The position numbers were made by a program, and so were the translations under genes. Below are positions 1,169-20,687 of a stretch of 20,687 nt of DNA, one piece after another. The notes under the pieces were generated by a model. The model saw nothing but the letters and a program-made list of their open reading frames with translations. It had not been told where the DNA came from and ran no database searches. Positions within the stretch are counted from its first letter, which is position 1. Every line of letters starts with the position of its first letter. This DNA comes from Lysobacteraceae bacterium (GTDB lineage: Bacteria > Pseudomonadota > Gammaproteobacteria > Xanthomonadales > Wenzhouxiangellaceae). The stretch spans positions 1 through 20,687 of the forward strand of contig JAIVHD010000245.1 in NCBI GenBank assembly GCA_020201235.1, written 5' to 3'.

Positions 1169-1331
1169 GCGACGAACCTGTCGTGAAATGGGTCCCTATG
1201 CTACCCCAGCTTATGGATCGCACGCTCACCGCAGGCGGCTGGCGGCGCGTCTTGCACTCAAAGGCAGGGCAGGCCGACGGGTCGCGATGTCGGGCAACCC
1301 GGCTTGCCGCACACCGCCGACCGGTTTATAG

Positions 1332-2282
1332 TGGCTGGAAGGACGCTGGGGGCAGCGGCCCAACCTGACCGCGCTGACGACGCTGACGGCCTGCGTGGTG
1401 CTGGTCGTGATTCCGGTTCTTCTGGTGTTGGGATCGTTCATGCAGCAAGGCATTGCCATTTACCAGCGAATCGATGCCGGAGAGATCCGTCCGGGCCAGC
1501 TCATCGATCAGATCCGCAATGCCTTTCCGGCGGTTCAGGCGTTTCTGGAGCGTTTCAATATCGACATCCGCGCGCTGCGCGAGGGGGCGACCAATGCCGC
1601 CATCACCGCCAGCCGATTGCTGGGCCAGAACGCACTTGCCGTCGGCCAGGGCACCTTCGAGTTCGTACTCAAGCTGGCCCTGATGCTCTACATCACATTC
1701 TTTCTGCTGCGCGACGGCCGGCGGCTGGTCGAGAAGCTGATCCATGTTCTCCCACTCGGCGACGAACGCGAACGGATGCTATTTCAAAAGTTTGCCGAAG
1801 TCGCGCGCGCAACCGTCAAGGGCAATCTGCTGGTCGCGATGGTCCAGGGCGCACTGGGCGGGATCATTTTCTGGATTCTCGGCATCCCGGCCGCCCTGTT
1901 GTGGGGCGTGATCATGACCGTGCTGTCGCTAATTCCAGCGGTCGGCGCCGGGCTGGTCTGGCTTCCGGCGGCGATCTATCTCTACGCCATCGGCGAATGG
2001 ATTTCGGCCAGCGTGCTGATCTCCTACGGTCTGGTGGTGATCGGACTGGCCGACAATATCCTGCGCCCCATCCTGGTCGGTCGCGACACCAAACTGCCCG
2101 ACTGGATGGTGCTGTTATCGACGCTGGGCGGGCTGGCGCTGTTTGGCATTAACGGCTTCGTGGTCGGCCCGTTGATCGCCGTTCTGTTCATCGCCTTCTG
2201 GCAGATTTTCGGCGACGAATTCAGCAATCGGCAGTCCGCAGAACAGCATTCGGCCGAAACCCGCTCATCACCCGAAGACTAA
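1332..2282 (+). pseudogene. AI-2E transporter / PerM-family permease, N-terminus missing
   Basis: The open frame begins right after a TAG at 1329-1331, with no ATG before the conserved sequence WLEGRWGQRPNLTALTTL. That segment normally follows the first one or two membrane helices of this family (about 350 residues), so roughly 60 N-terminal residues are absent. Only about 160 bp separate it from the divergent glycosyltransferase, too little for the missing part plus a promoter. The rest is well preserved: a helix near 1383-1440, a soluble domain to about 1660, then several membrane segments including LIPAVGAGLVWLP and the family's loop DNILRPILVGRDTKLP, followed by a short polar tail. PerM proteins are membrane permeases linked to autoinducer or ion export, and the substrate here is unknown. 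A GTG at 1395 could start a shorter product lacking helix 1. Either this is a real truncation or bases are missing at about 1331. Confidence 0.7.
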
Positions 2283-2456
2283 TCGGCCAAGCCGGCCGCA
2301 GCTCCTGCAACCGTCCATGACGCCTTCCTCTGAAAAAAGCTCCAGCAGCGCATCGGCCCGACCGGTTCCAAGCACGTGCGCTCCAGGCGTTGCCAACGCC
2401 GCCGCGCCTCGGGGATCGGATCGCGTGCAGGGCCCGACAACGCGCAGCGCCGGCTG

Positions 2457-4343
2457 ATGGCTCAATTCCGGCTGTTGGCCAATCGTCGTTTCGGGCCATT
2501 TTTTGCGGTCCAGGCACTGGGCGCGCTGAACGACAACATTTTTCGCAATGCACTGGCCACACTCATCGTATTCGGCATCGGGGTCGAGGCCGGCTGGGAC
2601 GCGAGCGGCCTGGTCAACCTGGCCGCATTGCTATTCATCCTGCCGTACTTCCTGTTTTCGGCCGTGTTCGGGCAACTCGCCGACCGCTTCGAAAAATCGC
2701 GCATGATCCGACTGATCAAGCTATTTGAAATCGCCATCTGCCTGTTTGCCGGCGTGGCGCTGTACCTGGGCGACATGCTGCTGCTGATGTCGGTGGTGTT
2801 TCTGCTGGGCCTGCAGTCGACGCTGTTCGGCCCGATCAAGTATTCAATCATCCCGCAGTTGCTGGAAAAACGCGAGTTGATCGGCGGCAACGGGCTGGTC
2901 GCAGCCGGCACCTACGTGGCCATCCTGGGCGGTACCATCCTCGGCCCGATCGTGGCTGGCGTACCGCTGGACTGGCCGTGGCTGGTGCTGGCGGCAACGC
3001 TGCTGGTCGCGATTGCCGGGTATCTGGCCTCGATCCTGGTGCCGCGAGCGGCCATTGGTGACGGCGACCTGGCCCTGGACCTGAATCCGGTGAGCGCGTC
3101 CTGGACCAACCTCAAGCTGCTCGGTCGCGACCGCAAGCTGCTGCACAGCGTACTCGGCGTTTCCTGGTTCTGGTTTTACGGCACGGTCTTTCTGGTCCAG
3201 ATTCCCGCCTGGACACAGGCTGTGATCGGAGGCAACGAAGCCACGCTTTCGGGCCTGCTGGCGCTGTTCATCGTCGGCATCTCGAGCGGTGCGCTGCTGT
3301 GCGAAAAGCTGTCCCGCGGCGGCGTCGAAATCGGCCTGGTGCCGATCGGTGCAATCGGCATGACGATCTTCGGGCTGGACCTGATGTTTGCCAGCCCGGC
3401 AGTTCCGCTGTTCGATGCCGGGATAGGCCAATTCCTGACCATGCCCGGCAGCGGACGAATCGTTTTCGATCTGCTGGCCATCGGTGTCAGCGGCGGTTTG
3501 TTCATCGTGCCGCTGTACGCGCTGATCCAGAGCCTGTCGGAAAACGCCGAGCGGGCCCGCGTAATCGCGGGCATGAACATCCTCAACGCGCTGTTCATGG
3601 TGCTCGCCAGCATCCTCGCGATCGTACTGCTCAGCGTGCTGGACTTTTCCATTCCGCAACTGTTCGGCATCGTCGCGGTCATCAATCTGCTGGTGGCCGT
3701 GTATGTGTTCACGCTTGTGCCGGCGTTCGCACTGCGGTTTCTGATGTGGGTGCTCAGCCGGTTGGTCTACCGTGTCCACGTGAGCGGCCACAGCATCGAC
3801 AAGCTGCCGGAGACAGGCCCGGCGCTGATCGTTTGCAACCATCTGAGCTATATGGACCCGCTGATCATCGGCGGCAGTCTGCAGCGCCCGATCCGGTTCG
3901 TGATGACCCACAGCATCTACAATATCCGCGGGCTGAAATGGCTGTTCCGGCTGGGCGGCGCGATCCCGGTAGCACCGGCCAAAGTCGACCCCGAGTGCAT
4001 GCGCCAGGCATTCGACAGCGTCGATGCCGCGCTGGCCAACGGCGAACTGGTCGGGATCTTCCCGGAAGGCGGACTGAGCCCGAACGGCGATGTGCAGTCG
4101 TTTCGTTCCGGCATTTCCGAAATTCTTCAGCGCCGACCGGTGCCGGTGGTACCGATGGCGCTGGAGGGTTTGTGGGGCGGCATATTCAGCCGCGCTCCGG
4201 ACCGCTGGAACCGGCGCGAACGGGGTTTCTTCAGCCATGTGCAATTGAACATCCTCGAACCGGTACCGGCCGGCGAGGCCAAGCGCGAGAAGCTGGAAAA
4301 TTCGGTTCGCCGTGCCTATCAGGACTTGCGCCAAAAAGCCTGA
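2457..4343 (+). CDS. MFS transporter (LplT-like) fused to PlsC-type acyltransferase
   Basis: A 628-residue protein. Residues 1 to about 420 form an MFS-type membrane domain resembling lysophospholipid flippase LplT (QALGALNDNIFRNAL near the start, FGQLADRFEKSRMI in the helix 2-3 loop, then many hydrophobic segments). Residues from about 435 form a glycerolipid acyltransferase domain with the catalytic HX4D box (His462, Asp467 in NHLSYMDPL) and the FPEGG box (535-539). E. coli splits this job between LplT and Aas, and Aas also has an acyl-ACP synthetase domain. No AMP-binding domain is present here. The likely role is inward flipping and re-acylation of lysophospholipids at the inner membrane, or acylation of lysophosphatidate. 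ATG 2457 is preferred over GTG 2376 because the family begins at MAQFRLLANRRFGPFF and the upstream stretch is Arg-rich. No clear Shine-Dalgarno precedes it. The gene lies 174 bp after the permease and looks intact. Confidence 0.85.
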   Translation: MAQFRLLANRRFGPFFAVQALGALNDNIFRNALATLIVFGIGVEAGWDASGLVNLAALLFILPYFLFSAVFGQLADRFEKSRMIRLIKLFEIAICLFAGVALYLGDMLLLMSVVFLLGLQSTLFGPIKYSIIPQLLEKRELIGGNGLVAAGTYVAILGGTILGPIVAGVPLDWPWLVLAATLLVAIAGYLASILVPRAAIGDGDLALDLNPVSASWTNLKLLGRDRKLLHSVLGVSWFWFYGTVFLVQIPAWTQAVIGGNEATLSGLLALFIVGISSGALLCEKLSRGGVEIGLVPIGAIGMTIFGLDLMFASPAVPLFDAGIGQFLTMPGSGRIVFDLLAIGVSGGLFIVPLYALIQSLSENAERARVIAGMNILNALFMVLASILAIVLLSVLDFSIPQLFGIVAVINLLVAVYVFTLVPAFALRFLMWVLSRLVYRVHVSGHSIDKLPETGPALIVCNHLSYMDPLIIGGSLQRPIRFVMTHSIYNIRGLKWLFRLGGAIPVAPAKVDPECMRQAFDSVDAALANGELVGIFPEGGLSPNGDVQSFRSGISEILQRRPVPVVPMALEGLWGGIFSRAPDRWNRRERGFFSHVQLNILEPVPAGEAKREKLENSVRRAYQDLRQKA

Positions 4344-4472
4344 GCAGAACACGCGCAATGCAATGTAATAATCTGCGGAATTTTGCGTAAACTGCGGTTC
4401 TCTTGGAAAAGGCTAAAACACGCACTGACCCCCCCCGAGTCCGATCCGGACACGCCCGCAAACCAGGCGAAT

Positions 4473-5026
4473 TTACGGCTTGCGCGCAAAAACATACATG
4501 CGTTCAGATTCGAAGTCGTAGGGTGTGCCCTCCAGGTCACCGTCGATGGCATCCAGTTCCAGCCCGGCCGATTCGACCAGGCGGGCGATTTCGCCGGCCG
4601 ACCAGACGCGGTGTGAAAACAGGGCCCGATCGGCGCGCTCGCCGTCGATCAGGATCCACTCGTTTTCGACCCGCGTATTGTGGTTGACCAGTAGCGGACG
4701 CTCGACCAGCAGGCGGCCATCGGCATATTCGGTCAGGTGCACCGGCTCCAGCGTGCGGCACAGGGTTTCCAGTCCGAGCAGGTCGAGCACCAACAGGCCG
4801 CCGGGCTTGAGGCTTTCGACGATTCTTGCCAGGACACGATGGCCCGCGCCAGCGGCAATGCGTGCCGGCCGGGCCCACAACCCAGGTCCAGCACAGTGCC
4901 GCGCTTAAGCCCGATTCGTATCAGCAGGTTCGGCACTTGTCCGGCAGCCTCGCTAAACTGATCGTCTCCGAACATCAGCGGGCCAAACGTGCGCCAGAAC
5001 CCCTCATCGTTATACCAGTCGTTCAT
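4473..5026 (-). pseudogene. SAM-dependent methyltransferase, internal deletion with frameshift
   Basis: The first 62 codons (5026 down to about 4841) encode a class I methyltransferase start: MNDWYNDEGFWRTFGPLMF, then motif I VLDLGCGPGRHALPLARA. At about 4841 that frame leaves homology. A different frame continues with HRVLARIVESLKPGGLLVLD (the motif IV/V region) through to the C-terminus MYVFARKP. The segment between, which normally holds the acidic SAM-ribose residue (motif II) and motif III, is absent. From family spacing about 60-70 codons are lost, and the two halves are out of frame. A functional product is not expected if the sequence is correct. The family is close to small-molecule methyltransferases with an N-terminal Trp/Tyr-rich extension, and the substrate is unknown. 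A good Shine-Dalgarno precedes the ATG. The start overlaps the divergent peptidase start. Confidence 0.75.
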
Positions 5027-6065
5027 GATCGTGTTCCTTGGTGTTTTGCTGTTGTCTTCCGGCGGCTGCGCCACGCTGGGCTGGTACGGCCAGGCCGCGC
5101 GCGGTCAGATGGAGTTGCTGATCAAGCGCAAGAATATTGAAAAACTGATTGCCGCGCCCGACACGCCGGAAGAAAGAAGGCACAAACTCGAGCTTGTGCT
5201 CGAACTTCGCGAATTTGCCGACAAGCGGCTGGGTCTGCCCGATAACGGCAGCTACTCGGGCTTTGTCGAGCTCGACCGGGATGCGGTAGTCTACAACGTG
5301 ATCGCCGCGCCCACGTTCAGCGTGGTGCCGAAAATCTGGTGCTACCCGCTGGTCGGCTGCCTGGCCTACCGCGGCTATTTTCGCGCGAGCGCGGCCGATC
5401 AGCAGGCCGCACAACTAAAAGCCGACGGCTACGATGTGGTGGTCTCGCCGGTCGCGGCCTATTCCACCCTGGGTCGCTTCAACGACCCGGTCACCAGCCC
5501 GATGCTGAAATTCAGCGATGTGCGCCTGGCCGGGCTGCTGTTCCACGAGCTGGCCCACCAGCGGGTTTTCGTCAAGGGTGAGACCGCCTTCAACGAGGCT
5601 TATGCGAGCTCGGTCGAAAACGCCGGAATCGAACGCTGGCTGGCCCGGGACCCAAGCCCGGAGCGGCTCGAACAATGGCGTCATTCGCGCACGATCGAGG
5701 ACGCCTTCACGGATCTGCTGCTGCTCGCACGACGCGATCTCGAAGCCCTCTATCAACGCAACGTCGAGCATGGCGAACGGGCCAAACTGAAGCGCCAGAG
5801 CTTCGCGAAACTTCAATCCGACTATGCCGACTTTCGAAAACGCCACGACAGCCAGCGGTTCGACGCCTACATGCAGCAGGACCTGAACAACGCCCATCTG
5901 GCCTTGCTGGCGACCTACCGGGCGGGAACCGACGCGTTCGATCAACTTCTGGCAGAATATCGCGGAAACTTTGAGCGCTTTCACCAGGCCGTAGAGCGAC
6001 TGGCCGGGGCCGATCAGGAAGTGCGCGCCCGTTTTTTGAACTGCCAGACCGGAACCTGCCCGTGA
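5025..6065 (+). CDS. Predicted lipoprotein zinc aminopeptidase (PF10023-type)
   Basis: A 346-residue protein from ATG 5025, matching the family of predicted proteobacterial aminopeptidases formerly called a DUF. A short hydrophobic signal ends in a lipobox (LLSSGGC, Cys15), so it should be lipid-anchored on the periplasmic side. A zinc site is visible as HELAH (His174, Glu175, His178) with FNEA about a dozen residues on, where Glu191 is the likely third ligand, as in gluzincin-type peptidases. The C-terminal third is helical and charged. Family-specific stretches such as LPDNGSYSGFVEL and FSVVPKIWCYPLVGC are present, so length and content look complete. The start is uncertain: ATG 5025 gives a signal with no basic n-region, while GTG 4989 adds Arg2 but overlaps the methyltransferase by 38 bp. 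Neither has a convincing Shine-Dalgarno. The natural substrate is not established. Confidence 0.8.
   Translation: MIVFLGVLLLSSGGCATLGWYGQAARGQMELLIKRKNIEKLIAAPDTPEERRHKLELVLELREFADKRLGLPDNGSYSGFVELDRDAVVYNVIAAPTFSVVPKIWCYPLVGCLAYRGYFRASAADQQAAQLKADGYDVVVSPVAAYSTLGRFNDPVTSPMLKFSDVRLAGLLFHELAHQRVFVKGETAFNEAYASSVENAGIERWLARDPSPERLEQWRHSRTIEDAFTDLLLLARRDLEALYQRNVEHGERAKLKRQSFAKLQSDYADFRKRHDSQRFDAYMQQDLNNAHLALLATYRAGTDAFDQLLAEYRGNFERFHQAVERLAGADQEVRARFLNCQTGTCP
5034..5039 (-). promoter_or_regulatory. Ribosome binding site of the methyltransferase
   Basis: On the minus strand AAGGAA lies seven bases before the ATG at 5026. It fixes the methyltransferase start and sits inside the signal-peptide codons of the divergent peptidase gene. 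Confidence 0.55.
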
Positions 6066-6215
6066 ATCGCTTCAAAATGCTCATCCTGCCCGGTCCGAAA
6101 CCGGCTTCAGCTCACCGTATCCACCCTCAATGCGCCGCGAGCAGCCGACAGGTCCTGCGGCTGAGGCGGTTCGCTTGCGGGCGCGCCGCAAGCGGACTCA
6201 CCCGAAGCCAGGCTG

Positions 6216-8423
6216 GTGGATAAGGTGGGTTCAAGCACCGGATACACGCTGTGCGGCCTCGTGCTATCGGGTCTGATGGCCTGCGGCTTCGAAGCCGGTA
6301 CGGCTGCGGCCCAGCAGCCCGCAGCAAGTTCCGAGGCCCCGGTTGAGGCCTGCCAGCCTCCGGGCAGCATCCCCGAGCGTGGCCTGCTGGATCGTTCACT
6401 CAATCTGCCGATGGACATCCAGGCCCTGACCATGCAGGCCCCGGGTCGCGATCAGCCGATTCGCTTTGCCGACGATGTGTTATTGATCCACGGCGACCAG
6501 CGACTGAATACCGACGAGCTGATTTATGACCCGGAAACCGGCGAGGTTGTGTTGCCGGGCTGGCTGAACTACTCCGACGCGCTGGTGCGCATGCAGGCCT
6601 CGAGCGCGCGCTACAACACCCGGAGTTCAACCGGCGAGTTTCTGGATGTTCGCTATTTCATCGCCGGGGCACAGGGCGCGGGCCATGCCGGTGAGGTCCT
6701 CATGATCGACCAGTCCAATGCCCGGGTGCGACAGTTCGACTTCACGACCTGCGACATCAACGATCCGGACTGGCAGCTCAAGTCCGGCGATGTCCAGCTC
6801 GACTTTGAAGCCGGTGTGGGCACCGCTCGCCATGCCCGGCTCGAATTCAAGGGTGTGCCGATTCTGTACTCACCGTGGCTGAGCTTCCCACTCAACGACC
6901 AGCGCAAATCGGGCTTCCTGTATCCTCAAATCGGCTCCAGCAGCGACAATGGCATCGACCTGGCAGTGCCCTATTACTGGAATATCGCCACCAACCAGGA
7001 TGCTACCTTCACCCCGCGGGTGATCGGCGAGCGCGGCTTCATGCTGGGTTCGGAATACCGCCTTCTGACCCGCCGGCACGGTGGCAGTGTTCATTTCGAC
7101 TACCTGCCCGACGACAACGAGGCCGATCGCGATCGCTGGCTCGGGCGAATTCGCTACCAGGCACGACTGGCACCGGACTGGTCGGCGCGCCTGAATTTCA
7201 ACCGCACCAGCGACCAGGATTACTTTCTCGATCTCGGTGACGACCTCGACTCCAGCTCGACGCCGTTTCTGCGCTCGGATCTGGCCATCACCGGCCAGGG
7301 TCGCCACTGGCTACTGCAAACGACCTTCGACACGTTCCAGGTACTCGATCGCTCGGTGCCCCCGAGCCGCGACCCCTACAGCCGCCTGCCACGGGTGGAA
7401 TTGGACGGCGACTGGCCGCTGCCGGCCAACCTCAGCCTGCGGCTGGATAGCGAAGCGGTTTATTTCGATCGCAGCGAAGGTGTGACCGGTGCGCGCGTCG
7501 ATCTGCTGCCCGAACTGGCCATGCGACTGGTTCGCCCCGGCTGGTTCCTGGAACCCGCAGCCGGCCTGCGCGCGACCGCCTACAGCCTGCAAGATCAAAG
7601 CGGCGATGACGACACGCCCAGCCGGGTCCAACCCATCCTCAGCGTTGACGGTGGCCTGGTGTTTGAACGCGAAACCCAATCCGGTCGCCTGCAAACCCTG
7701 GAGCCGCGCGCGTTTTATCTCTACGTGCCGGGCGAAAAACAGGACGACATCCCGCTATTCGACACGCGCGAACTGACCTTCAGCTTCGCCCAGCTTTTTC
7801 AAACCAACCGCTTCTCCGGGGCCGACCGCCAGACCGACGCCAACCAGCTGGCGCTGGCTCTGACCAGCCGTCTGCTGGACGACGTCGACGGCCGCGCGAT
7901 TGTCGACGGCAGCATCGGCCAAATTTTCTTTTTTGACGACCCCAGCGTTTCTCTCAGGCCGGGTCCGAAGGAGAGCCGGTCGGTTTCGGCCACGGTCGGA
8001 GAAATCAACTGGCGTCCCGACGATCGCTTCCTGCTGACCGCCGGATTGCAGTGGGATCCGGAAGAAAGTGAAACTGATGTCGCCGCATTCGGTCTCAGGT
8101 GGCAGGGAAACGATGCCCGTCAGGTGCAATTCGGATATCGTTTCCGGCGTGATCGCGTCGACCAGGTCGACATGCGCTTTCGCTACCCGGTGACGCCCAA
8201 GCTGAACCTGATCAGCCGGGTTGATTATTCGTTTGAGGATGACACGGCTCTGGAGTTGCTCGGTGGAATCGAGTATGAAAGCTGTTGCTGGGCCATTCGG
8301 GCCTCGGTGCGCCGCTTCATTCGCGATCGCGAGTCGGAAAAACGAACCGCGTTTTTCCTCGAATTGCACCTGAAGGGGCTTGGCAGCCTTGGCCGCCGAC
8401 CCTATCGCCTGTTTAGTCAATAA
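6216..8423 (+). CDS. lptD: LPS-assembly outer-membrane protein LptD
   Basis: A 735-residue outer-membrane beta-barrel protein that with LptE inserts lipopolysaccharide into the outer leaflet. A signal sequence with a likely cleavage after TAAA (residues 29-32) is followed by an OstA-like jellyroll (about 80-215), with repeats such as ADDVLLIHGDQRLNTDELIYD, and then the barrel, rich in alternating aromatic strands to the C-terminus. The four cysteines of the LptD disulfide network are all present: Cys46, Cys179, and the adjacent pair Cys690-Cys691 (YESCCWA). Length is within the family range. The start is uncertain: GTG 6216 or GTG 6225, the latter with GGTGG just upstream; no ATG is available. 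surA follows after 32 bp, the usual arrangement in gammaproteobacteria. The 150 bp between the peptidase and lptD contain no gene I can support. Confidence 0.95.
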   Translation: MDKVGSSTGYTLCGLVLSGLMACGFEAGTAAAQQPAASSEAPVEACQPPGSIPERGLLDRSLNLPMDIQALTMQAPGRDQPIRFADDVLLIHGDQRLNTDELIYDPETGEVVLPGWLNYSDALVRMQASSARYNTRSSTGEFLDVRYFIAGAQGAGHAGEVLMIDQSNARVRQFDFTTCDINDPDWQLKSGDVQLDFEAGVGTARHARLEFKGVPILYSPWLSFPLNDQRKSGFLYPQIGSSSDNGIDLAVPYYWNIATNQDATFTPRVIGERGFMLGSEYRLLTRRHGGSVHFDYLPDDNEADRDRWLGRIRYQARLAPDWSARLNFNRTSDQDYFLDLGDDLDSSSTPFLRSDLAITGQGRHWLLQTTFDTFQVLDRSVPPSRDPYSRLPRVELDGDWPLPANLSLRLDSEAVYFDRSEGVTGARVDLLPELAMRLVRPGWFLEPAAGLRATAYSLQDQSGDDDTPSRVQPILSVDGGLVFERETQSGRLQTLEPRAFYLYVPGEKQDDIPLFDTRELTFSFAQLFQTNRFSGADRQTDANQLALALTSRLLDDVDGRAIVDGSIGQIFFFDDPSVSLRPGPKESRSVSATVGEINWRPDDRFLLTAGLQWDPEESETDVAAFGLRWQGNDARQVQFGYRFRRDRVDQVDMRFRYPVTPKLNLISRVDYSFEDDTALELLGGIEYESCCWAIRASVRRFIRDRESEKRTAFFLELHLKGLGSLGRRPYRLFSQ

Positions 8424-8455
8424 GCCAAACTTCACAACCAGGAATACCGACCTCC

Positions 8456-9742
8456 ATGATCAAAATTGCAAAACCTCTTATTTCCGCCATTGCCATGCTG
8501 GCGTTGTTGCTGCCGGTCGTGGCCGGCGGCCAGGACGTCGAGAAGATCGACGAAATTGTCGCCATCGTCGACGAAGGCGTGATTCTTCGCTCCGAGCTCG
8601 AAAGCTCAATCAACGGCATCGTGCAACAGATCCAGGCCCGTGGGGAGCGCCAGCCACCACGCCAGGTGCTGGAAGAGCAGGTGCTCGAACGGCTGATCAT
8701 GAGCGAGGTTCAGATTCAGCGCGCCGAGCAGACCGGTATCCGGGTGACCGACCAGGAAGTCGACCGCTCGCTCGAAGATGTCGCACGCCAGAACAATCTG
8801 ACGCTTTCGCAACTGCGCCAGGCGGTCGAATCCGATGGCGTTGAATTCAACGAATTTCGTGGCGATATCCGAAAGCAGTTGCTGACCTCGCAATTGCGTC
8901 AGCGCATCGTCGACAGCATGGACGATGTCACAGATACCGAGGTCGATATCCTGCTCGAATCTGATTTTTTCGAAAGTGACGAATATCACCTTTCCCAGAT
9001 CGCACTGCAATTCTCGCCAGCCGCAGGGCCGGTTGAAACCCGCGAGGTCGAGGCCAAAATGAGCGCCATTGCCGAGGAGATCAAAAGCGGCATGGATTTC
9101 GCAACCGCTGCCATCAACTATTCCGAAGCGCCCGACGCGCTGGAGGGCGGCGCGATCGGCTGGCGCAATCTCAACACCATGCCACGCCAGCTGGCCGACC
9201 GGATTCGCGACCTGCGACCCGGACAGGTGTCCGACCCGATCTTCGGCAATGGCAGCCTGATGCTGGTCAAGGTCAATGACCGCCGGATGCGCGGCGAAGT
9301 CATCGTCAATGAACTCAATGCCCGTCACATCATGATCCAGCCTTCTGAACTGATGTCGCCGGAAGCCGCGCGCGAACTGGCCGAGGACCTGTACCGTCGG
9401 ATATCCGACGGCGAGGATTTCGGCGCGCTGGCGCGCGAATTTTCCGACGACAACCGATCGGCCAACATCGGCGGCGAAATGGCCTGGTTCCCGGAAGGTG
9501 CCTACGGCGATACCTTTCAGGCCGTTTGCGACAGCCTCGCGCCCGGTGAAGTCAGCCAGCCTTTCCAGACCCAGCAGGGCTGGCACATCGTCCAGCTTGA
9601 AGGCCAGCGCCAATCCGACCGTACCGACGAGGCGCTGCGCGCCGAGGCGCGCAACATGCTGATGGATCAACGCACCCAGGCCGAGATCGATCGAACCCTG
9701 CGCCAGATCCGCGACGAGGCTTATGTTCAGATCAAGCTTTAA
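8456..9742 (+). CDS. surA: Periplasmic chaperone and peptidyl-prolyl isomerase SurA
   Basis: A 428-residue protein, the same length as E. coli SurA. It carries a signal peptide (basic start, hydrophobic core, about 25 residues), an N-terminal chaperone domain starting at EKIDEIVAIVDEGVILRSEL, two parvulin-type domains (first around 175-275 with EGGAIGWRNLNTMP, second around 285-390 with NIGGEMAWFPEGAYGDTF) and a C-terminal helix. SurA escorts unfolded outer-membrane proteins, notably LptD, through the periplasm. It starts 32 bp after lptD and is probably co-transcribed with it. pdxA begins about 100 bp later, in the order known from enterobacteria. The sequence looks complete, with no unusual residues. 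Confidence 0.96.
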   Translation: MIKIAKPLISAIAMLALLLPVVAGGQDVEKIDEIVAIVDEGVILRSELESSINGIVQQIQARGERQPPRQVLEEQVLERLIMSEVQIQRAEQTGIRVTDQEVDRSLEDVARQNNLTLSQLRQAVESDGVEFNEFRGDIRKQLLTSQLRQRIVDSMDDVTDTEVDILLESDFFESDEYHLSQIALQFSPAAGPVETREVEAKMSAIAEEIKSGMDFATAAINYSEAPDALEGGAIGWRNLNTMPRQLADRIRDLRPGQVSDPIFGNGSLMLVKVNDRRMRGEVIVNELNARHIMIQPSELMSPEAARELAEDLYRRISDGEDFGALAREFSDDNRSANIGGEMAWFPEGAYGDTFQAVCDSLAPGEVSQPFQTQQGWHIVQLEGQRQSDRTDEALRAEARNMLMDQRTQAEIDRTLRQIRDEAYVQIKL

Positions 9743-9846
9743 AGCACGTCAGTGCTGTCACGGCTGTTCGGCGCGGCGGCGCTGATGAACGTCATCGCCA
9801 CACGCTACACGGTCTGGGTCTCCGGCGGTCGCCGGGCTGATTGCAG

Positions 9847-10720
9847 ATGATCCAGCAGCCGTTGCTGCTGACGCCGGGCGAACCGTCCGGCGTCGGGCCA
9901 GAACTTGCCGTCGAGATCGCTCATTCATTGCCTGCCAATCCGGCTTGCGGTCGACGCGCTGCCCGGAAAGCTTGATCGCCGCAATGCCGCCTACGTTCTC
10001 GAATGCCTGTCGCGTTCAGTGCAGGTGATCCTGTCCGGCCGGGCCGCAGGCCTGGTCACCGGCCCGGTGCACAAGGCCATTATCAACGACGCCGGCATCG
10101 CATTTTCCGGCCACACAGAGTTTCTCGCCGACCTGGCCGGGATCGAACGCGTGGTCATGATGCTGGTTGCCGACCGCTTGCGCGTCGCGCTGGCGACCAC
10201 CCATCTGCCGCTGAGCAAAGTGCCGGCGGCGATCAGCCGGACCGGCCTGGAGCAAACGCTGCGGATTATCGCCGCGGACCTGGCAGGCCGCTTCGATATT
10301 GAACAGCCGCGTATCGCCGTGCTCGGACTCAATCCGCATGCGGGCGAAGGCGGGCACCTGGGTCGCGAGGAAATCGATGTCATCGAACCGGTGGTCGCCG
10401 GGTTGCGCGCCGAAGGTCTGCGCCTGGAAGGACCGCTGCCGGCCGATACGGCATTCGTCCTGCGCAATCTCAAGCGATTCGACGCGGTGCTCGCCATGTC
10501 CCATGATCAGGGCCTGCCGGTACTCAAATACGCAGGCTTTGGTCACGCGGTCAACGTCACGCTCGGCCTGCCGTTTATCCGCACCTCGGTCGACCACGGC
10601 ACCGCGCTGGACCTTGCCGGCACCGGCAAGGCCGACCCCGGAAGCCTGAAAGCCGCGATTGAGCTGGCACAGCGGATGACGCGGGCCGGCACTGCGGCAC
10701 ATGCGAAAACCGAATCATAA
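9847..10720 (+). pseudogene. pdxA: 4-hydroxythreonine-4-phosphate dehydrogenase PdxA, internal deletion
   Basis: PdxA oxidises 4-phosphohydroxy-L-threonine with NAD(P)+ in pyridoxal 5'-phosphate synthesis. The start ATG 9847 gives LLLTPGEPSGVGPELAVEIA, the correct N-terminus, but this frame stops at about 9975. From about 9945 a different frame resumes the family at LPGKLDRRNAAYVLECL and continues to the end through TGPVHKAIINDAG, GHTEF, the metal-binding region NPHAGEGGHLG, DQGLPVLKY and PFIRTSVDHGTALDLAG. By comparison with the roughly 330-residue family about 65-70 residues (E. coli positions near 32-100) are missing and the halves are out of frame. Everything else is strongly conserved, which argues against slow decay. 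The order surA-pdxA-rsmA-apaH is the standard gammaproteobacterial one, so the gene identity is secure. Confidence 0.9.
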
Positions 10721-10826
10721 ACAGCCGAAAATTTTCAGCCGAACGAAGCTTGCCGGAGCGACCTGCTACTGAACGCCCGGTGCGATACTCTTGACCTCTT
10801 GTCCTCTTGGCAATTTTGCAACCGGC

Positions 10827-11516
10827 ATGCGCCATACTCCGCGAAAACGATTCGGCCAGAATTTCCTGGTCGACGAATCCGTGATCCAGAACATCATGGG
10901 GGCCATCGCACCGGCGGCGCACGATCGCTTCGTCGAGATCGGGCCGGGCCTGGGTGCGCTGACGCGACCGCTGCTGCGGCGGGCGTTCGACTTTGCCGCG
11001 CTGGCCGAAGGCGAAATGCTGCGGGTGGTCGGCAACCTCCCCTACAATATTTCGACACCGCTGCTGTTTCATCTTCTTGACCAGACTGGCACGATCCGGG
11101 ACATGCATTTTATGCTGCAAAAGGAGCTTGTCGAACGACTCGACGCCGGGCCGGGCAGCAAGCTCTGGGGGCGGCTCGGCGTCATGACCGCAGCGCGGGC
11201 CGACGCGAGCTGCCTGTTCACGGTACCGTCGGATGCGTTTCGGCCCGCGCCCAAGGTTGAGTCGGCGGTCGTCCGGATTGTCCCACGGGCGCTTTCGGAG
11301 ACCGAAAAAAAGCGCTTGCCGGCGCTCGAGGCGATCGTTCGCAAGGCCTTCGGTCAGCGCCGCAAGACCCTTCGCAACACACTGGACGGCATGATCAGCG
11401 CAGGACAACTCGAAGATGCCGGCATCGACCCCGGCCAACGCGCCGAAAGCGTCTCGTTGGCGCAGTTCTGCCGTCTGGCCGATCAGTTCATCGCTCGACA
11501 GACGAACCGCCCGTGA
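10827..11516 (+). pseudogene. rsmA: 16S rRNA dimethyladenosine transferase RsmA (KsgA), in-frame internal deletion
   Basis: RsmA dimethylates two adjacent adenosines near the 3' end of 16S rRNA. ATG 10827 gives MRHTPRKRFGQNFLVDESV, followed by SAM motif I (EIGPGLGALTRPLL). At about 10983 the sequence jumps to FDFAALAEGEMLRVVGNLPYNIS, keeping the catalytic NLPY box (motif IV) and the rest of the protein. The stretch that should carry the acidic SAM-binding residue (IELDRDL in E. coli) and motif III is absent. About 35-40 residues are lost in frame, leaving 229 residues against about 270. A protein could be made, but SAM binding should be impaired, so I list it as damaged. pdxA ends 106 bp upstream, and apaH begins at a GTG overlapping this stop by four bases (GTGA). 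Confidence 0.9.
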
Positions 11517-12343
11517 GCACGCGGCGGCACATCTTCATCGGCGATCTGCAAGGCTGCTGGGAAGCCTTTGGCCGCCTGCTCGACAAGCTCCGTTTCGATC
11601 CGGCCAGTGACCGCCTGTGTCTGGCCGGAGATCTGGTCAACCGTGGCGGCCAATCGCTGAAAGTGCTGCGCGAGGTCGTCGGGCTTGGTGAGCCGCATTT
11701 CAGCGTGCTCGGCAATCACGATCTGCATCTTCTTGCCTACGCCCACCGGCACCCGAAAGTGCGCAAGAAAAACCCGGAATTCGAGCGCATTCTCGACCAC
11801 GCGCAAGGTCACGAGATGCTCGATTGGCTAAGAAGACAACCGCTGGTCTGGATGAACGACGACCTGCAAATTGCACTGGTGCATGCCGGAATCGATCCGC
11901 GTTGGGATCCGGATCAGGCAAGGCGCGCGGCATCCGAGGTGACCGCGGCGCTGCGCGGCCCACGATTCAGCAAGTTCATCGACCACATGTACGGCAATCA
12001 ACCGGCGCGCTGGATGCCCGAACAGAAGCGCTACGTCAGGCTGAGAACCACCACCAACGTGCTCACCCGGATGCGTTTCGTGCAAGCCGACGGGCACCTG
12101 GAACTGGAGTCCTCGGGCGACCTGCAAAATCCGCCCGCAGGCTACCGACCCTGGTTTGAACTGCTGAACCCATCCTGGCGCCACTGGTCGATCGTATTCG
12201 GACACTGGTCGATGCTGGGCTACCACAACCACGCCGACGGACGCGCCATCTGCCTGGACTCCGGCTGCGTCTGGGGCGGCGCGCTCACCGCCCTGGTCGT
12301 CGAGGATGGCCAGCGCTCGATGGTGCAGATTGGCTGCAAATAA
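11513..12343 (+). CDS. apaH: Symmetrical bis(5'-nucleosyl)-tetraphosphatase ApaH
   Basis: A 276-residue metallophosphatase that cleaves Ap4A to two ADP. The family's phosphoesterase motifs appear in order near the N-terminus: FIGDLQGCW, LCLAGDLVNRGGQS and SVLGNHDLH. Further on come LVHAGIDPRWD and FGHWSMLG, the later metal-binding histidines. Length matches E. coli ApaH (280). The GTG start at 11513 overlaps the rsmA stop in GTGA, implying translational coupling. A 13-bp tandem duplication covers the stop codon. A possible terminator for a convergent minus-strand gene follows directly. The gene looks intact. Confidence 0.96.
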   Translation: MSTRRHIFIGDLQGCWEAFGRLLDKLRFDPASDRLCLAGDLVNRGGQSLKVLREVVGLGEPHFSVLGNHDLHLLAYAHRHPKVRKKNPEFERILDHAQGHEMLDWLRRQPLVWMNDDLQIALVHAGIDPRWDPDQARRAASEVTAALRGPRFSKFIDHMYGNQPARWMPEQKRYVRLRTTTNVLTRMRFVQADGHLELESSGDLQNPPAGYRPWFELLNPSWRHWSIVFGHWSMLGYHNHADGRAICLDSGCVWGGALTALVVEDGQRSMVQIGCK

Positions 12344-12356
12344 GGGCTGCAAATAA
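12332..12356 (+). repeat. 13-bp tandem duplication across the apaH stop codon
   Basis: GGCTGCAAATAA occurs at 12332-12343, including the apaH stop, and again at 12345-12356. The second copy repeats the last codons and stop outside the gene. Confidence 0.85.
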
Positions 12357-12370
12357 AGCCGGGCACCGGC
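12351..12370 (-). terminator. Rho-independent terminator, minus strand
   Basis: Read on the minus strand, GCCGG-TGC-CCGGC (12370 to 12358) forms a short GC stem directly followed by TTTATTT (12357-12351). It lies 17 bases after a minus-strand stop codon at 12388-12390 and is placed to end a gene convergent with apaH. The stem is only 5 bp. Confidence 0.45.
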
Positions 12371-12387
12371 ATCTCCGGACGGCGCGC

Positions 12388-12432
12388 TCACCGTCCGAGA
12401 GCAGATTCGGCACTTTCGACGAATTCCCACGC
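12388..12432 (-). pseudogene. C-terminal remnant of an unidentified minus-strand gene
   Basis: Fourteen codons ending [14 protein letters not shown] and a TGA at 12388-12390 read on the minus strand, helix-like in composition, and are followed by a plausible terminator. Just beyond 12432 the sequence turns abruptly into plus-strand hutU from its middle. The simplest reading is that a gene convergent with apaH stood here and all but its last codons is missing. The fragment is too short to identify and could be chance. Confidence 0.3.
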
Positions 12433-12436
12433 AGCC

Positions 12437-13075
12437 ACCCAGGGGATTGTTCAAGGCACCTTCGAGACCTATGCCGAATGCGCACGCCAGCACTTTGGCG
12501 GCACGCTCAACGTCACTGCCGGTTGCGGCGGCATGGGCGGAGCCCAGCCACTGGCGATTACCATGAACGGTGGCACCTGCCTGATCGCCGACGTTGACAG
12601 CTCGCGCCTGGAACGCCGCAAGGCCAAGCGCTACCTCGACGAAGTGCACCACGACCTCGACATGGCCATCGACCGGTCGCTTGCGCTGAAAGCAGTATCC
12701 GCGCCGATCGTCATTGGCCGCGATCACCTGGACTGCGGCTCGGTGGCCTCGCCAAACCGAGAAACCGAGGGCATGAAGGACGGATCCGATGCGATTTCGG
12801 ACTGGCCGCTGCTCAACGCGATGGTCAACGTCGCCTCGGGCGCGTCCTGGGTCCGTTTCCACCTCGGTGGCGGCGTCGGTATCGGCTATTCGCAGCACGC
12901 CGGCCAAGTGATTGTTGCCGACGGCACGCCGGAGGCCGCCGCCAGGCTCAAGCGCGTGCTCGCCAACGACCCGGCCACCGGTGTGTTTCGCCACGTCTCG
13001 GCCGGTTACGACGAGGCCAGGACGTGCGCCGGGCAGCAGGGGCTGGACAGCCCGTTTGATCGGCGGGGCTTGTGA
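12437..13075 (+). pseudogene. hutU: Urocanate hydratase HutU, 5' end and centre missing
   Basis: HutU converts urocanate to imidazolone propionate in histidine breakdown and is normally about 555 residues. Here 212 codons remain, in two blocks. Block one begins mid-protein at [14 protein letters not shown] and runs through [14 protein letters not shown] to about [14 protein letters not shown]; about 130 N-terminal residues are missing. Block two resumes in frame at about 12690 with [20 protein letters not shown], then [18 protein letters not shown] and [17 protein letters not shown] to the C-terminus. Between them about 230 residues, including most of the NAD+-binding core, are absent. The product could not be active. 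Both blocks are otherwise highly conserved. hutG and hutI pieces follow at once, so a hut operon was or is present here. Confidence 0.88.
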
Positions 13076-13098
13076 GGATCAATCTGGCGCAGGCCCGG

Positions 13099-13123
13099 TA
13101 CAATTAGAAAGTTTTCAAACTTT
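13099..13123 (+). promoter_or_regulatory. Possible promoter -10 and palindromic operator before hutG
   Basis: TACAAT (13099-13104) resembles a -10 box, and the inverted repeat AAAGTTTTCAAACTTT (13108-13123, 7-bp arms around a TC) follows at once. GAGG (13126-13129) may serve as ribosome binding site for ATG 13141. No good -35 is seen at the proper distance. The palindrome would overlap the transcription start, fitting a repressor site, but it does not resemble HutC operators I know. Confidence 0.4.
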
Positions 13124-13140
13124 GCGAGGCTTTGATATCC

Positions 13141-13368
13141 ATGACCGAATCCTCATCCTCACCGACACTGCACTGCACGCCCGGAACCTGGCCCGACCGG
13201 CACCCCCAGCGCTTTGCCTCGGCCATCATCGGCACCCAAGGCATTGCCGAAACGCTGCAACAGCATCGCGAAGGGCAATTGATTGGCGCAGGCCACGGCT
13301 TTCGCGGGGTCGGCCTGCTCGGGCTTGCCGATGACCAAGGCGTTCGCCTCAACGGCGGACGGGTCGGT
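13141..13368 (+). pseudogene. hutG: Formimidoylglutamase HutG, N-terminal fragment
   Basis: ATG 13141 opens a frame of about 75 codons that ends in GLLGLADDQGVRLNGGRVG. This matches the start of the ureohydrolase (arginase) fold in formiminoglutamases, where the family reads LLGFACDEGVRRNQGR. After about 13368 homology stops, the frame becomes low-complexity, and none of the Mn-binding Asp/His motifs of the family follows. About 250 residues are missing. The enzyme would split N-formimino-glutamate into glutamate and formamide, the last step of one hut route. Its position after hutU supports the assignment. The join leads directly into an amidohydrolase C-terminus in another frame. Confidence 0.7.
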
Positions 13369-13369
13369 C

Positions 13370-13447
13370 ACCGACGCGCGCAATCTGGCCTTCGAGTTCG
13401 GCGGCAATCCGGTCGCACGGGTCATGATTTCCGGAGAGTGGGTCTGA
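13370..13447 (+). pseudogene. hutI: Probable imidazolonepropionase HutI, C-terminal fragment
   Basis: In a frame shifted from the hutG fragment, 25 codons ending ARNLAFEFGGNPVARV, a short tail GEWV and a TGA read like the C-terminus of an amidohydrolase of the imidazolonepropionase type. Those usually end in PAELAYxFGxNP followed by a beta strand. HutI catalyses the step between HutU and HutG, so the context fits well. The rest of the gene (about 380 residues) is absent. Another amidohydrolase such as HutF cannot be excluded from so short a piece. Confidence 0.45.
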
Positions 13448-13487
13448 ACCTGTGTACCCTGTGGGTCGCACCTAACAGACGGGCTTC

Positions 13488-14074
13488 ATGAACGAATTCG
13501 ACCTGATTGCAGAGATCAAGGCGTGAACATCGGCGTGACCGCACTGGGCGAAGTCGCGGTTGGAAGATTTGCCACGCGCGGCGGCGCGCGCGTCGGACAA
13601 CGCATCGTGGTCACCGGGACGCTGGGCGACGCGGCTGCCGGCCTGAAGCTTGAAAGACCCGTGGGCGACCCGCTGCGAGAAAGAGGGTTGAAGCCCGCGC
13701 CGCGGTGCGCTGCCGGGCACCAACTGGCCGGGATTGCAAACGCCGTGATCGACATCTCCGACGGCCTTCTCGCCGACCTTGCGCACCTGACCGGCCAACT
13801 CGGTGCCGAGATTCGCCTCGACCGGCTGCCGACATCATCGGCGCTGACCCACGCCGTACCCGACCAACGCGAACGCTGGCCGTTTCAGTTTTCCGGCGGC
13901 GATTACGAGTTGCTGGGGCTGATCGCGGAAGACGCGCAATTACCGGCCTCGGCCGGCGGCGTCATACTGACCGAAATCGGTCGAATCACCGGATCGGGCA
14001 CGATCGAGTGCCTGGACGAAAACGGCCGGGTGTTCGAAACCTCGGGGGCCGGTTGGGATCACTTCAGGTCTTAA
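13488..14074 (+). pseudogene. thiL: Thiamine-monophosphate kinase ThiL, internal deletion with frameshift
   Basis: ThiL phosphorylates thiamine monophosphate to the active diphosphate. ATG 13488 starts MNEFDLIAEIK, the family N-terminus, then hits TGA at 13524. The overlapping next frame (from 13523) resumes at NIGVTALGEVAVGRFATRGG, normally about residue 130, and continues to the end through VVTGTLGDAAAGLKL, IDISDGLLADL and GWDHF. About 110-120 residues, including the ATP/Mg-binding DDxA region, are missing. In addition SGGEDYELL reads SGGDYELL, one residue short. A shortened protein from GTG 13523 would lack the nucleotide site. pgpA follows after 2 bp, as in many gammaproteobacteria. Confidence 0.88.
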
Positions 14075-14076
14075 AT

Positions 14077-14583
14077 ATGGACAAGACATCGATCAGCGGC
14101 AGCACCGCCCGGCACGTGGCCACCCGGACGCCGGTCGGCTTTCTGGCTTTTGGCTTCGGCTCGGGCCTGGCACCGAAAGCGCCGGGCACGGTCGGCACCC
14201 TGATGGGCATGCTGGTCGGCCTGCCGCTGGCCGGCGTGCCGCTGTGGGCCGGGCTGGTGATTGTCGCGCTTGCCTTCCTGGCAGGCATCCCGATTTGCCA
14301 AAAGGCGTCCACTGCGCTCGGCGTACATGACCACAGCGGCATCGTGTGGGACGAATTCGTCGGCATCTGGCTGGTGCTGGTGCTGGTGCCGTTCGAGCCG
14401 GCCTGGTGGCTGGCGGCGTTCCTGGCATTCCGGCTCTTCGATGTGGTCAAACCGTGGCCGATCGGCTGGCTGGACCGCAAGGTCGACGGTGGCTTCGGCA
14501 TCATGCTCGACGACCTGATCGCCGCGTTGTATGCGGCAGCCGTTCTGATCGCAATCCGTAACCTGTTACCACCGGGCGGCTGA
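14077..14583 (+). CDS. pgpA: Phosphatidylglycerophosphatase A
   Basis: A 168-residue inner-membrane enzyme that dephosphorylates phosphatidylglycerophosphate to phosphatidylglycerol. Family motifs are clear: FGSGLAPKAPGTVGTLMG near the N-terminus, HDHSGIVWDEFVGIW with the catalytic acidic pair, and RLFDVVKPWPIGWLD, ending in a helix with DDLIAAL. Three to four hydrophobic segments are visible. Length matches E. coli PgpA (172). ATG 14077 follows the thiL stop (TAA 14072-14074) by two bases, implying an operon. It is intact despite the damaged thiL. It is the last plus-strand gene, convergent with the minus-strand operon. Confidence 0.95.
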   Translation: MDKTSISGSTARHVATRTPVGFLAFGFGSGLAPKAPGTVGTLMGMLVGLPLAGVPLWAGLVIVALAFLAGIPICQKASTALGVHDHSGIVWDEFVGIWLVLVLVPFEPAWWLAAFLAFRLFDVVKPWPIGWLDRKVDGGFGIMLDDLIAALYAAAVLIAIRNLLPPGG

Positions 14584-14647
14584 TTCACCCATCTGTTGCA
14601 AAAATGTATCTGATTGCGTACATGTTTCAGCCATTTGTAAAACGAAC

Positions 14648-14675
14648 CGCAGATTACGCAGATTTTCGCAGATTA
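14648..14675. repeat. Three copies of CGCAGATT(A/T) in the convergent gap
   Basis: CGCAGATTA, CGCAGATTT and CGCAGATTA stand at 14648, 14657 and 14667 in the AT-rich 109-bp spacer between the ends of pgpA and the SPOR gene. No GC-rich terminator stem is visible in this spacer. An imperfect inverted repeat ATGTA/TACAT lies upstream, near 14605-14625. Confidence 0.6.
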
Positions 14676-14692
14676 TTGAGTTTTCGCACTTT

Positions 14693-15322
14693 TCAGAAAC
14701 ACGGGATTTCGAACTGCACCGAGCCCGGTGCCGAGCGCAGGATGAAGCTCGACGGCGAGCGCTGGCCGGGGTCGATCTGGTAGTCGACCCAGAATTGCGG
14801 AATGTCTTCGCGGCGGACGGTCATTTGCGCATCGAAACCCAGCCTTCGAATTTGGGCCAGACGGGCGCGGGCATTGTCTGCCTGCTCGTACAGGCCCAGC
14901 GAAACGGCGTCGGGAAGCAACTCATCGGCAACCACGAAATAATCCTCGACGCCGCGTTCGGCCAGACGCTGCGCCAACTCGATGGCCGCCGCACGGCTGG
15001 CAGCAGCCACAAACACCCACCAGCCGCGATCGCGGTCGGCGTGTGTTGTGCGCAGCCGAATCCGGTTGGCGAAGGGCCGCAGACGATCCTCAGCACGGCT
15101 TTGCTGGACTGGCGTGGCAAGCGGTCCGATTGAGTAGCAGCGCGGTTCGCTGCCGCTGCTGCGGCGAAATGCATCGGCCACCATCTGCACCTGCGGCACG
15201 GCCGGCGCGGCCGGCAGCGGCTCGACCTCGACTACAGCTTCGGGCTGCAGGGCGCGCAACACCAGCAGTGCACTGTTGAGCACAAGCAGAGTCATGGCAG
15301 TCACAAGCCAAAAGCGATTCAT
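14693..15322 (-). CDS. SPOR-domain membrane protein
   Basis: A 209-residue protein with one N-terminal membrane helix (about residues 4-25), a Pro/Ala/Val-rich linker, and a C-terminal domain with the beta-alpha-beta pattern of SPOR-type repeats: CYSIGPLATP, WWVFVAAASRAAAIELAQRL, DYFVVADEL, SLGLYEQADNARARLAQI. SPOR domains bind denuded septal peptidoglycan, so a periplasmic, cell-division-linked role is likely. It is the last gene of the minus-strand operon and starts 12 bp after the coaX stop. A SPOR protein at this position beside coaX and birA occurs in related gammaproteobacteria. The exact function is unknown. Confidence 0.75.
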   Translation of the reverse strand: MNRFWLVTAMTLLVLNSALLVLRALQPEAVVEVEPLPAAPAVPQVQMVADAFRRSSGSEPRCYSIGPLATPVQQSRAEDRLRPFANRIRLRTTHADRDRGWWVFVAAASRAAAIELAQRLAERGVEDYFVVADELLPDAVSLGLYEQADNARARLAQIRRLGFDAQMTVRREDIPQFWVDYQIDPGQRSPSSFILRSAPGSVQFEIPCF

Positions 15323-15334
15323 CGGGGGTCCGCT

Positions 15335-19625: not shown

Positions 19626-19698
19626 GCCGACTGCCTCACGCCAGTAATGCCGGGCCCGGGCTGCGCGGCAACCGGCAAGCCGCATCGGCACCGCATCA

Positions 19699-19941
19699 TC
19701 AATCCAGACCGGCCAACTCGCGTACCTGCGACGCCGTAAACGGCCAGGTCAGCTTTTCGCCGGTTTGATCGTTGAGAATCACCGGAACCTGGTCGCCGTA
19801 GCGCTGGATGAGGTCGAGATCCGAGTCGATATTGACACCCTCGATCCGGCCAGACAACCCACCGAGGGTAATCAGCTTCCAGGCTTTGTCGCAAAGGCTG
19901 CAATCCTCCCGGGTATAAAAAATCAGTCCCATTCCAGGCAT
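19699..19941 (-). CDS. Glutaredoxin-like thiol protein (DUF836 type)
   Basis: A small protein of 80 residues (77 if ATG 19932 is used) with a thioredoxin fold start (LIFYTREDCSLCDKAWKLI) holding a CSLC redox pair. The typical cis-Pro region QVPVILND and a short C-terminal helix ending AGLD follow. Such proteins are thought to reduce disulfides or mixed thiols in the cytoplasm; no partner is known. It lies 73 bp before the DhaL-DegV start and is probably in the same minus-strand operon. The 121-bp gap upstream contains a hairpin ACCCGG/CCGGGT (20001-20018) without a T tract and a TAAAAT -10-like sequence on the minus strand, at best a weak promoter. Confidence 0.8.
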   Translation of the reverse strand: MPGMGLIFYTREDCSLCDKAWKLITLGGLSGRIEGVNIDSDLDLIQRYGDQVPVILNDQTGEKLTWPFTASQVRELAGLD

Positions 19942-20062
19942 CCATTGGCAAACGTAAACGCATCCGGCTTTATGGTCGCGCGGCCCGACCCGATAATTTT
20001 ACCCGGCGGCCACCGGGTACGGGTGCCGGCCTGCATGCGTCGAAATCCTGTGTGTCGATATT

Positions 20063-20686: not shown

Positions 20687-20687
20687 C

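What the first reader, a model, noticed from the sequence alone, without database searches (positions are those of the whole stretch)
1331..13524. Conserved genes repeatedly missing internal blocks: collapsed assembly gaps or a burst of deletions
At about 1331, 4841, 9945, 10983, 12434, 12690, 13368 and 13520 well-conserved protein sequence stops and a later part of the same or the next gene follows at once. The remaining parts show almost no other decay, and core genes (rsmA, pdxA, thiL) are hit. Bases 5025-9850 and 13530-20687 look clean. Deletions in a living lineage should spare core genes, so removal of gap characters from a scaffold, or misassembly of a low-coverage genome, is the leading explanation. 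Genuine rapid reduction would be striking.
Basis: partly seen in the sequence, partly recalled or inferred. Interest (0 to 1): 0.7.

Follow-up and report, generated by a model that had tools for sequence, protein, structure and literature searches.

The report
Genes cut short by assembly errors
Stretches of DNA are missing at eight spots in this bacterial sequence, and the same kind of silent gap turns up in other pieces of the same draft genome but was not found in the close relatives compared with it, so it is almost certainly a fault of genome assembly and not evolution.

Summary
All eight junctions are confirmed against two to five same-genus genomes. Each joins two conserved stretches bluntly. 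About 190, 131, 105, 606, 1,816 and 349 bp are missing at the six best-measured joins. pdxA, thiL and a methyltransferase-like gene are frameshifted; rsmA loses 35 residues in frame.

The deletions are not special to this window. In 98 kb of coding sequence on 23 other contigs of this draft (439 contigs, 83% complete) the same test finds 8 more silent deletions of 89-298 bp. The reverse test, 216 placements of the draft's ORFs on relatives, finds 0. The tested arms of broken genes are open and show pN/pS close to intact neighbours. Joins lack shared sequence, and 4 of 13 lengths are in frame, as chance predicts.

Best explanation: an assembly artefact in which contigs or read-sized islands were butt-joined across unassembled gaps. 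Wholesale removal of N characters is refuted, because 8 N runs survive in 49 readable contigs. No raw reads were available, so genuine deletions are very unlikely but not excluded. Ordinary; low interest.

The parts
1331..1332 (+). Junction J1: AI-2E family (PerM-type) transporter gene begins at about codon 48; at least 141 bp of its start missing
   Evidence: five relatives align from 1331-1347 on; Pfam AI-2E_transport from profile position 62
4838..4841 (-). Junction J2: SAM-dependent methyltransferase-like gene (reverse strand), 190 bp missing, frameshift
   Evidence: G005, G004 and G003 agree on 190, G002 gives 199. Gene name by inspection: Pfam gave no hit to either piece
9920..9929 (+). 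Junction J3: pdxA, 131 bp missing (122 against G004, 158 against G003), frameshift
   Evidence: pdxA in relative by TIGR00557, window arm by PF04166
10981..10986 (+). Junction J4: rsmA (ksgA), 105 bp missing in frame (35 residues after the GPGLGAL stretch)
   Evidence: TIGR00755 in the relative, PF00398 in two stretches in the window; G002 gave 153 and 105
12344..12428 (+). Junction J5 (within or at the end of this stretch): between apaH and the interior of hutU; 143 N-terminal residues of hutU missing
   Evidence: relatives with hut genes have 2.5-5.9 kb more here; G005 has no hut genes here
12693..12701 (+). Junction J6: hutU, 606-607 bp missing
   Evidence: G002, G004, G003; 606 in all three at protein level
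13368..13370 (+). Junction J7: hutG N-terminal part joined to hutI C-terminal end; 1,816-1,821 bp missing
   Evidence: G002, G004; families in the relative by TIGR01227 (below its cut-off) and TIGR01224
13522..13524 (+). Junction J8: thiL, 349 bp missing after codon 11-12, frameshift
   Evidence: (G005 and G002 agree to the base)
13369..13522 (+). 154-bp island between J7 and J8 (hutI end, intergenic, thiL start), about one short read in length
12428..12694 (+). 267-bp island between J5 and J6 (hutU interior)

Best explanation
The window comes from a fragmented, incomplete draft genome of a Wenzhouxiangellaceae-like gammaproteobacterium, and the missing blocks are assembly errors. In stretches that did not assemble, flanking contigs or read-sized islands were placed in the right order, presumably by read-pair links, but butt-joined with no gap character, so that 89 to about 1,800 bp (and at J5 perhaps kilobases) silently vanish. 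Shown: the deletions, their bluntness, their occurrence on several contigs of this draft, the lack of clear decay, and surviving N runs whose lengths do not always match the distance in relatives. Inferred: low local coverage as the cause of the gaps, and a zero or negative gap estimate by the scaffolder (IDBA-UD-like) as the cause of the joins.
For: Relatives agree on the missing length to the base at 349, 249, 238 and 89 bp, in two of two used at 105 bp and three of four at 190 bp, while only this draft lacks the block. The same events lie on seven other contigs: 8 strong events of 89-298 bp in 98,220 coding bases, and 0 in the reverse direction over 216 placements. At nine joins cross-junction similarity is near random and exact shared bases are 0-2, so neither repeat recombination nor a k-mer-sized graph error is needed. 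4 of 13 lengths are multiples of three. Eight tested arms each have a frame without stops, with pN/pS of 0.06-0.42 (0.52 for a 60-codon hutG piece) against 0.21-0.36 in four intact neighbours. N runs are present and inexact: 84 N where G005 has about 11 bases, 225 N where the protein comparison wants 349-598, 71 N where about 93-117 are expected. A DNA search of the bin with the G002 region covering pdxA to thiL found the missing pieces of J3-J8 nowhere else beyond matches of 38-66 bases (40 of 277 first-look candidates scored). PMC7111523 (passages read) describes local assembly errors and misplaced Ns at scaffold joins, the former suspected to be prominent in IDBA-UD assemblies.
Against: No reads, coverage or source record could be examined, and assembler and library are unknown. 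The longest losses (606, 1,816 and at least 2.5 kb) exceed what an ordinary short-insert pair would bridge, so they need longer inserts, intermediate unplaced contigs, or a partly real difference. hut genes are truly absent at this locus in G005, so part of the J5 distance may be real gene loss. pN/pS of rsmA (0.42 and 0.38) and of thiL against G005 (0.39) lies slightly above the highest intact value of 0.36. The assembly does write N runs at some gaps, so a reason is needed why these were not written. Apparent truncations of gene ends occur in both directions (25 forward, 14 reverse) and were not used, because they mix with start-codon choice.
Confidence: 0.88

Rival explanations
1. Genuine recent burst of blunt deletions in a lineage undergoing rapid genome reduction or with very error-prone end joining.
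For: Deletions are real in the deposited sequence, blunt and found on several contigs. hut genes are dispensable (recalled) and absent at this locus in G005. rsmA and thiL arms have pN/pS slightly above the intact neighbours. The draft is small (2.89 Mb), though incompleteness explains that equally well.
Against: pdxA, thiL and rsmA are hit and no second copy was found in the bin by DNA search. Every tested arm has an open frame and most have ordinary pN/pS. Lengths are random modulo three (4 of 13). At least 13 gene-interrupting deletions in about 118 kb of coding sequence would imply some two hundred or more genome-wide, all too recent to have gathered other lesions.
Confidence: 0.04
2. Gap characters were stripped from the scaffolds after assembly.
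For: Blunt joins in correct order and orientation with variable missing length look exactly like removed N runs. The window itself has no N.
Against: 8 N runs of 12-225 bases survive in 49 readable contigs of the same draft, so a general stripping did not happen. It could only have affected some scaffolds or runs of a certain kind.
Confidence: 0.05
3. Chimeric molecules from whole-genome amplification or library making were assembled as if real.
For: Deletion-like chimeras exist. In a thinly covered region one chimeric read could decide the consensus.
Against: In amplified DNA 85% of chimeras were inverted and only 11 of 475 joined segments in direct orientation less than 10 kb apart, mostly with short shared bases (PMC1855051, passages). 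In the window 8 of 8 joins are direct, and the joins measured lack shared bases. Outside the window the method could only see direct joins, so it says nothing on this point.
Confidence: 0.03

Closest known systems
Local assembly errors and faulty scaffold joins in metagenome-assembled genomes (Chen et al. 2020, PMC7111523; outline and passages read)
   Same: Wrong sequence at scaffold joins, incomplete protein-coding genes in an uncurated draft, and N runs whose length does not match the true distance
   Different: The defining test, absence of perfectly matching reads over the join, could not be made; the passages seen do not describe this exact form (no N and a missing block)
Pseudogenisation and reductive genome evolution
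   Same: Several neighbouring genes interrupted
   Different: No other clear decay in the tested arms, random reading frame, core genes hit, and similar lesions on other contigs of this draft but not in the relatives compared

Membership tests
Assembly error at a scaffold join | Lesion present in one assembly and absent in all relatives compared, and not reciprocal | tested here: met
   8 strong events outside plus 5 inside the window by one method; 0 in 216 reverse placements
Assembly error at a scaffold join | Occurs across the assembly, not at one biological locus | tested here: met
   C1, C11, C89, C155, C230, C274 (two) and C296 besides C313
Assembly error at a scaffold join | No read matches the join perfectly; coverage drop or broken pairs | not testable with these tools
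   no reads available
Removed gap characters | No N runs left in the assembly | tested here: not met
   8 N runs in 49 readable contigs
De Bruijn graph or repeat-mediated misassembly | Both flanks share a stretch of about k bases at the join | tested here: not met
   cross matches average about 3 of 12 (range 0-7), exact shared bases 0-2 at 9 joins, judged on relatives' sequence
Genuine gene decay or genome reduction | Raised pN/pS, stops or small frameshifts in the remaining arms | tested here: not met
   eight arms tested, each with an open frame (frame chosen for fewest stops); pN/pS mostly within intact neighbours (0.21-0.36), with rsmA 0.42/0.38, thiL 0.39 against G005 and a 60-codon hutG piece 0.52 above
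Genuine gene decay or genome reduction | Core genes spared, or replaced by a second copy | tested here: not met
   pdxA, rsmA and thiL are hit; no second copy found by DNA search; short contigs appear masked and the bin is 83% complete
Amplification chimera | Mostly inverted joins | tested here: not met
   8 of 8 joins in the window direct; not testable outside with the same-strand method; comparison from passages of PMC1855051

The most novel reading that the evidence does not exclude
A wild gammaproteobacterial lineage caught in a very recent burst of blunt, frame-blind deletions of about 90-1,800 bp across the genome, hitting even core genes, as after loss of a repair system combined with an active end-joining system.
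Probability: 0.03. Interest if true: 0.75.

Novelty: not a real feature. Interest (0 to 1): 0.08.

Why it matters
As an artefact it is a warning: draft genomes of this kind can hold silent gaps with no N to mark them. In this one they occur about once per 12 kb of compared coding sequence outside the window, even though estimated contamination is low (0.47%; completeness 83%). Gene absence, pseudogene counts, odd domain architectures and apparent loss of pyridoxal phosphate or thiamine synthesis read from it would be wrong.

Tried and rejected
Rejected as a general cause: removal of N characters. Rejected: repeat or k-mer-mediated collapse. Rejected for J3-J8: pieces moved elsewhere in the bin (the missing pieces of J1 and J2 were not in that query). 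Rejected: extreme base composition of the missing blocks, whose mean GC of 0.69 is close to 0.68 in the flanks. Thought unlikely: amplification chimeras. Not conclusive: whether the gene order around 2221-2480 and 14550-14692 is real or another join, because relatives differ there.

Led nowhere: a whole-collection protein search for same-species full-length genes (database off); a DNA scan of viral contigs for the thiL junction (0 matches); Rfam on the window and four contigs (0 matches); two literature searches for the exact error type, of which I saw the listings only. Four weak gaps of 64-72 bp (C1:5879, C89:10640, C331:9740, C230:3526) and one further loss of about 81 bp seen only at the DNA level (C296:7236-7260) were left out of the strong count. 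The gap at C1:10417 contains N and was counted as an N gap. Gene-end truncations were left out in both directions. G002 and G003 were left out of J4.
Full report
What the window is. The window is the whole of contig C313 (20,687 bases) of a draft genome of 2.89 Mb in 439 contigs, 83.1% complete and 0.47% contaminated. Five held genomes belong to the same genus, G001-G005. The contig lengths of G002:C15 and G005:C48 equal those of records titled 'Lysobacterales bacterium isolate SP244' and 'Wenzhouxiangellaceae bacterium isolate GSL_GB14_17', so the window belongs near Wenzhouxiangellaceae.

The observation. I located the joins by extending the left and right arms independently and summing over relatives. 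J2 at 4838/4841 lacks 190 bp (G005, G004, G003; 199 against G002). J3 at 9920/9929 in pdxA lacks 131 bp (G005, G002), 122 (G004) or 158 (G003 at the protein level). J4 at 10981-10986 in rsmA lacks 105 bp (G005, G004); G002 gave 153 and was left out, but gave 105 at the protein level. J6 at 12693-12701 in hutU lacks 606-607 bp (G002, G004, G003). J7 at 13368 joins hutG to the end of hutI and lacks 1,816 (G002) or 1,821 bp (G004). J8 at 13522 in thiL lacks 349 bp (G005, G002). J1 at 1331 removes the first 47 codons or so of an AI-2E-type transporter. J5 at about 12428 removes the first 143 codons of hutU; relatives with hut genes have 2.5 (G003), 3.0 (G004) or 5.9 kb (G002) more between apaH and that point. 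Relatives' full-length genes were named by NCBIfam models: pdxA, rsmA/ksgA, thiL, hutU and hutI above cut-off, hutG below cut-off. The methyltransferase name is by inspection; neither window piece had a Pfam hit.

Is it local? No. I sampled 60 of the 438 other contigs of the draft. Twelve were dropped for being at least 90% N; they are the twelve under 3 kb and presumably masked. That leaves 49 contigs with the window, 389,897 bases. Proteins from 1.41 Mb of relatives' sequence were placed on them: 189 placements covering 19,449 coding bases in the window and 98,220 on 23 other contigs. Outside the window there are 8 strong internal deletions without any N: C1:1889 (249 bp, two relatives), C89:11947 (238 bp, three relatives), C155:3634 (89 bp, two relatives here and a third at the DNA level), C11:3089 (298), C230:2623 (292), C274:2830 (169, two relatives), C274:10770 (116) and C296:7574 (231). 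Their genes, by family search on the relatives' copies, are HrpB helicase and, a MoxR-type AAA ATPase, a tricorn-type S41 protease, an HlyD-family adaptor, an MMPL transporter, a patatin-like phospholipase, an LppC-type lipoprotein and a PD-(D/E)XK nuclease. Four weaker gaps of 64-72 bp and one gap containing N were not counted. By the same method the window shows 5 (J2, J3, J4, J6, J8); J1, J5 and J7 cut gene starts or join two genes and are invisible to it. The rates are 0.26 per kb in the window and 0.08 per kb elsewhere, but the window was picked because it looked odd.

The control in the other direction. Placing the draft's own ORFs on G003, G005, G002 and G004 (54, 93, 50 and 19 placements) found 0 such deletions in the relatives. 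An earlier, smaller version with two relatives also found no internal deletion. That earlier version did list apparent truncations of gene ends in both directions, 14 and 11 forward and 8 and 6 in reverse; these mix with the choice of start codon and were not used.

Nature of the joins. At nine joins examined base by base, six in the window and three outside, the sequence beyond each arm matches the relatives' continuation at about 3 of 12 bases on average (range 0-7), which is near chance, while the arms match at 6-12 of 12; exact shared bases are 0-2. So there is no sign of repeat-mediated recombination or of a k-mer-length overlap, with the reservation that the draft's own missing bases cannot be seen. 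Of the 13 lengths found, 4 are multiples of three (105, 231, 249, 606; if J6 is 607, as G002 and G003 give at the DNA level, 3). Missing blocks have ordinary base composition (0.69 against 0.68 GC in flanks). Two islands between joins are 154 and 267 bp long, the size of one short read or read pair.

No clear decay. Eight arms of broken genes were tested; each has a frame without stops, the frame being chosen for fewest stops. Their pN/pS against G005 or G002 is 0.06-0.42, and 0.52 for a 60-codon hutG piece; four intact neighbours (surA, lptD, apaH and the MFS/acyltransferase gene) give 0.21-0.36. rsmA (0.42, 0.38) and thiL against G005 (0.39) are slightly above that range. The short arms of pdxA, thiL, hutI and the methyltransferase start were not tested. 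The missing pieces of J3-J8 were found nowhere else in the bin (DNA search with the G002 region, 40 of 277 first-look candidates scored; only matches of 38-66 bases elsewhere). Genes kept under selection until now and then broken in frame-blind fashion on several contigs, with no other lesion, is what an artefact looks like.

Which artefact? Blanket removal of N characters is refuted: 8 N runs of 12-225 bases are present in the sampled contigs. They look like scaffold gaps of estimated length. At C419 there are 84 N where G005 has about 11 bases; at C375, 71 N where relatives suggest about 93-117; at C1, 225 N inside a gene that wants 349-598 bp. The other N runs had no relative sequence to compare. 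I cannot fully exclude that some short N runs are masking by the operators. The most economical account is that the scaffolder or gap filler mis-estimated distances and joined contigs directly where the estimate was zero or below. Chen et al. (PMC7111523; [quoted passage not shown] That this draft was made with such an assembler is inference. Losses of 606 bp and more strain a short-insert explanation and may include unplaced intermediate contigs or, at J5, real differences, since G005 has no hut genes at this locus.

Amplification chimeras fit poorly: in that process 85% of 475 chimeras were inverted and only 11 joined nearby segments in direct orientation (PMC1855051, passages), whereas 8 of 8 joins in the window are direct. 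Outside the window the method could only see direct joins.

Limits. No reads, coverage or source record were available. About 13% of the draft was sampled, and less of it aligned. The artefact verdict rests on comparison alone. On checking, the odds of the best explanation were set at 0.88 instead of 0.90 so that the four readings sum to one.

Noticed in passing
window 4362-4420 (+) and 14623-14677 (-): A dispersed intergenic repeat of about 45-60 bases (core like AATAATCTGCGNAANNNTGCGTAANCTGCGGTT) occurs twice in the window, on other contigs of the draft and in G002, G004 and G005. The two window copies align but differ by more than 3 bases over 41.
   Followed up: partly
window 14550-14692 and 2221-2480: Gene order breaks against relatives: the part after pgpA maps to a distant place or another contig in G004, G003 and G005, and 2.7-4.9 kb present in G005 and G002 between the transporter and MFS genes is absent. 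Either rearrangement or further joins; the first break lies beside a repeat copy.
   Followed up: partly
window 12428-13440; L024 about 8700-10870: The histidine-utilisation genes hutU-hutG-hutI between apaH and thiL are patchy in the genus: matched in G002, G003 and G004, absent at the locus in G005, where other genes (by inspection a DMT-type transporter and a PfpI-like protein) stand.
   Followed up: partly
L056:14985-15135, L041:13210-13425, L048:5765-5910: A short element shared by several contigs and by G002 at about 89-92% identity, higher than most genes. The L041 copy, read on its minus strand, begins CTAGCAGCCTGTCGGACTT and ends in the inverted form, so it looks like a small non-autonomous transposable element; Rfam gave no match.
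   Followed up: partly
L060:4911-4994 (G000:C419): A run of 84 N stands where G005 has only about 11 bases, so N runs in this draft overstate as well as understate gaps.
   Followed up: yes
L130:7236-7260 (G000:C296): A further loss of about 81 bp against G005, close to the 231-bp one, suggests a second cluster of silent gaps on this contig.
   Followed up: no
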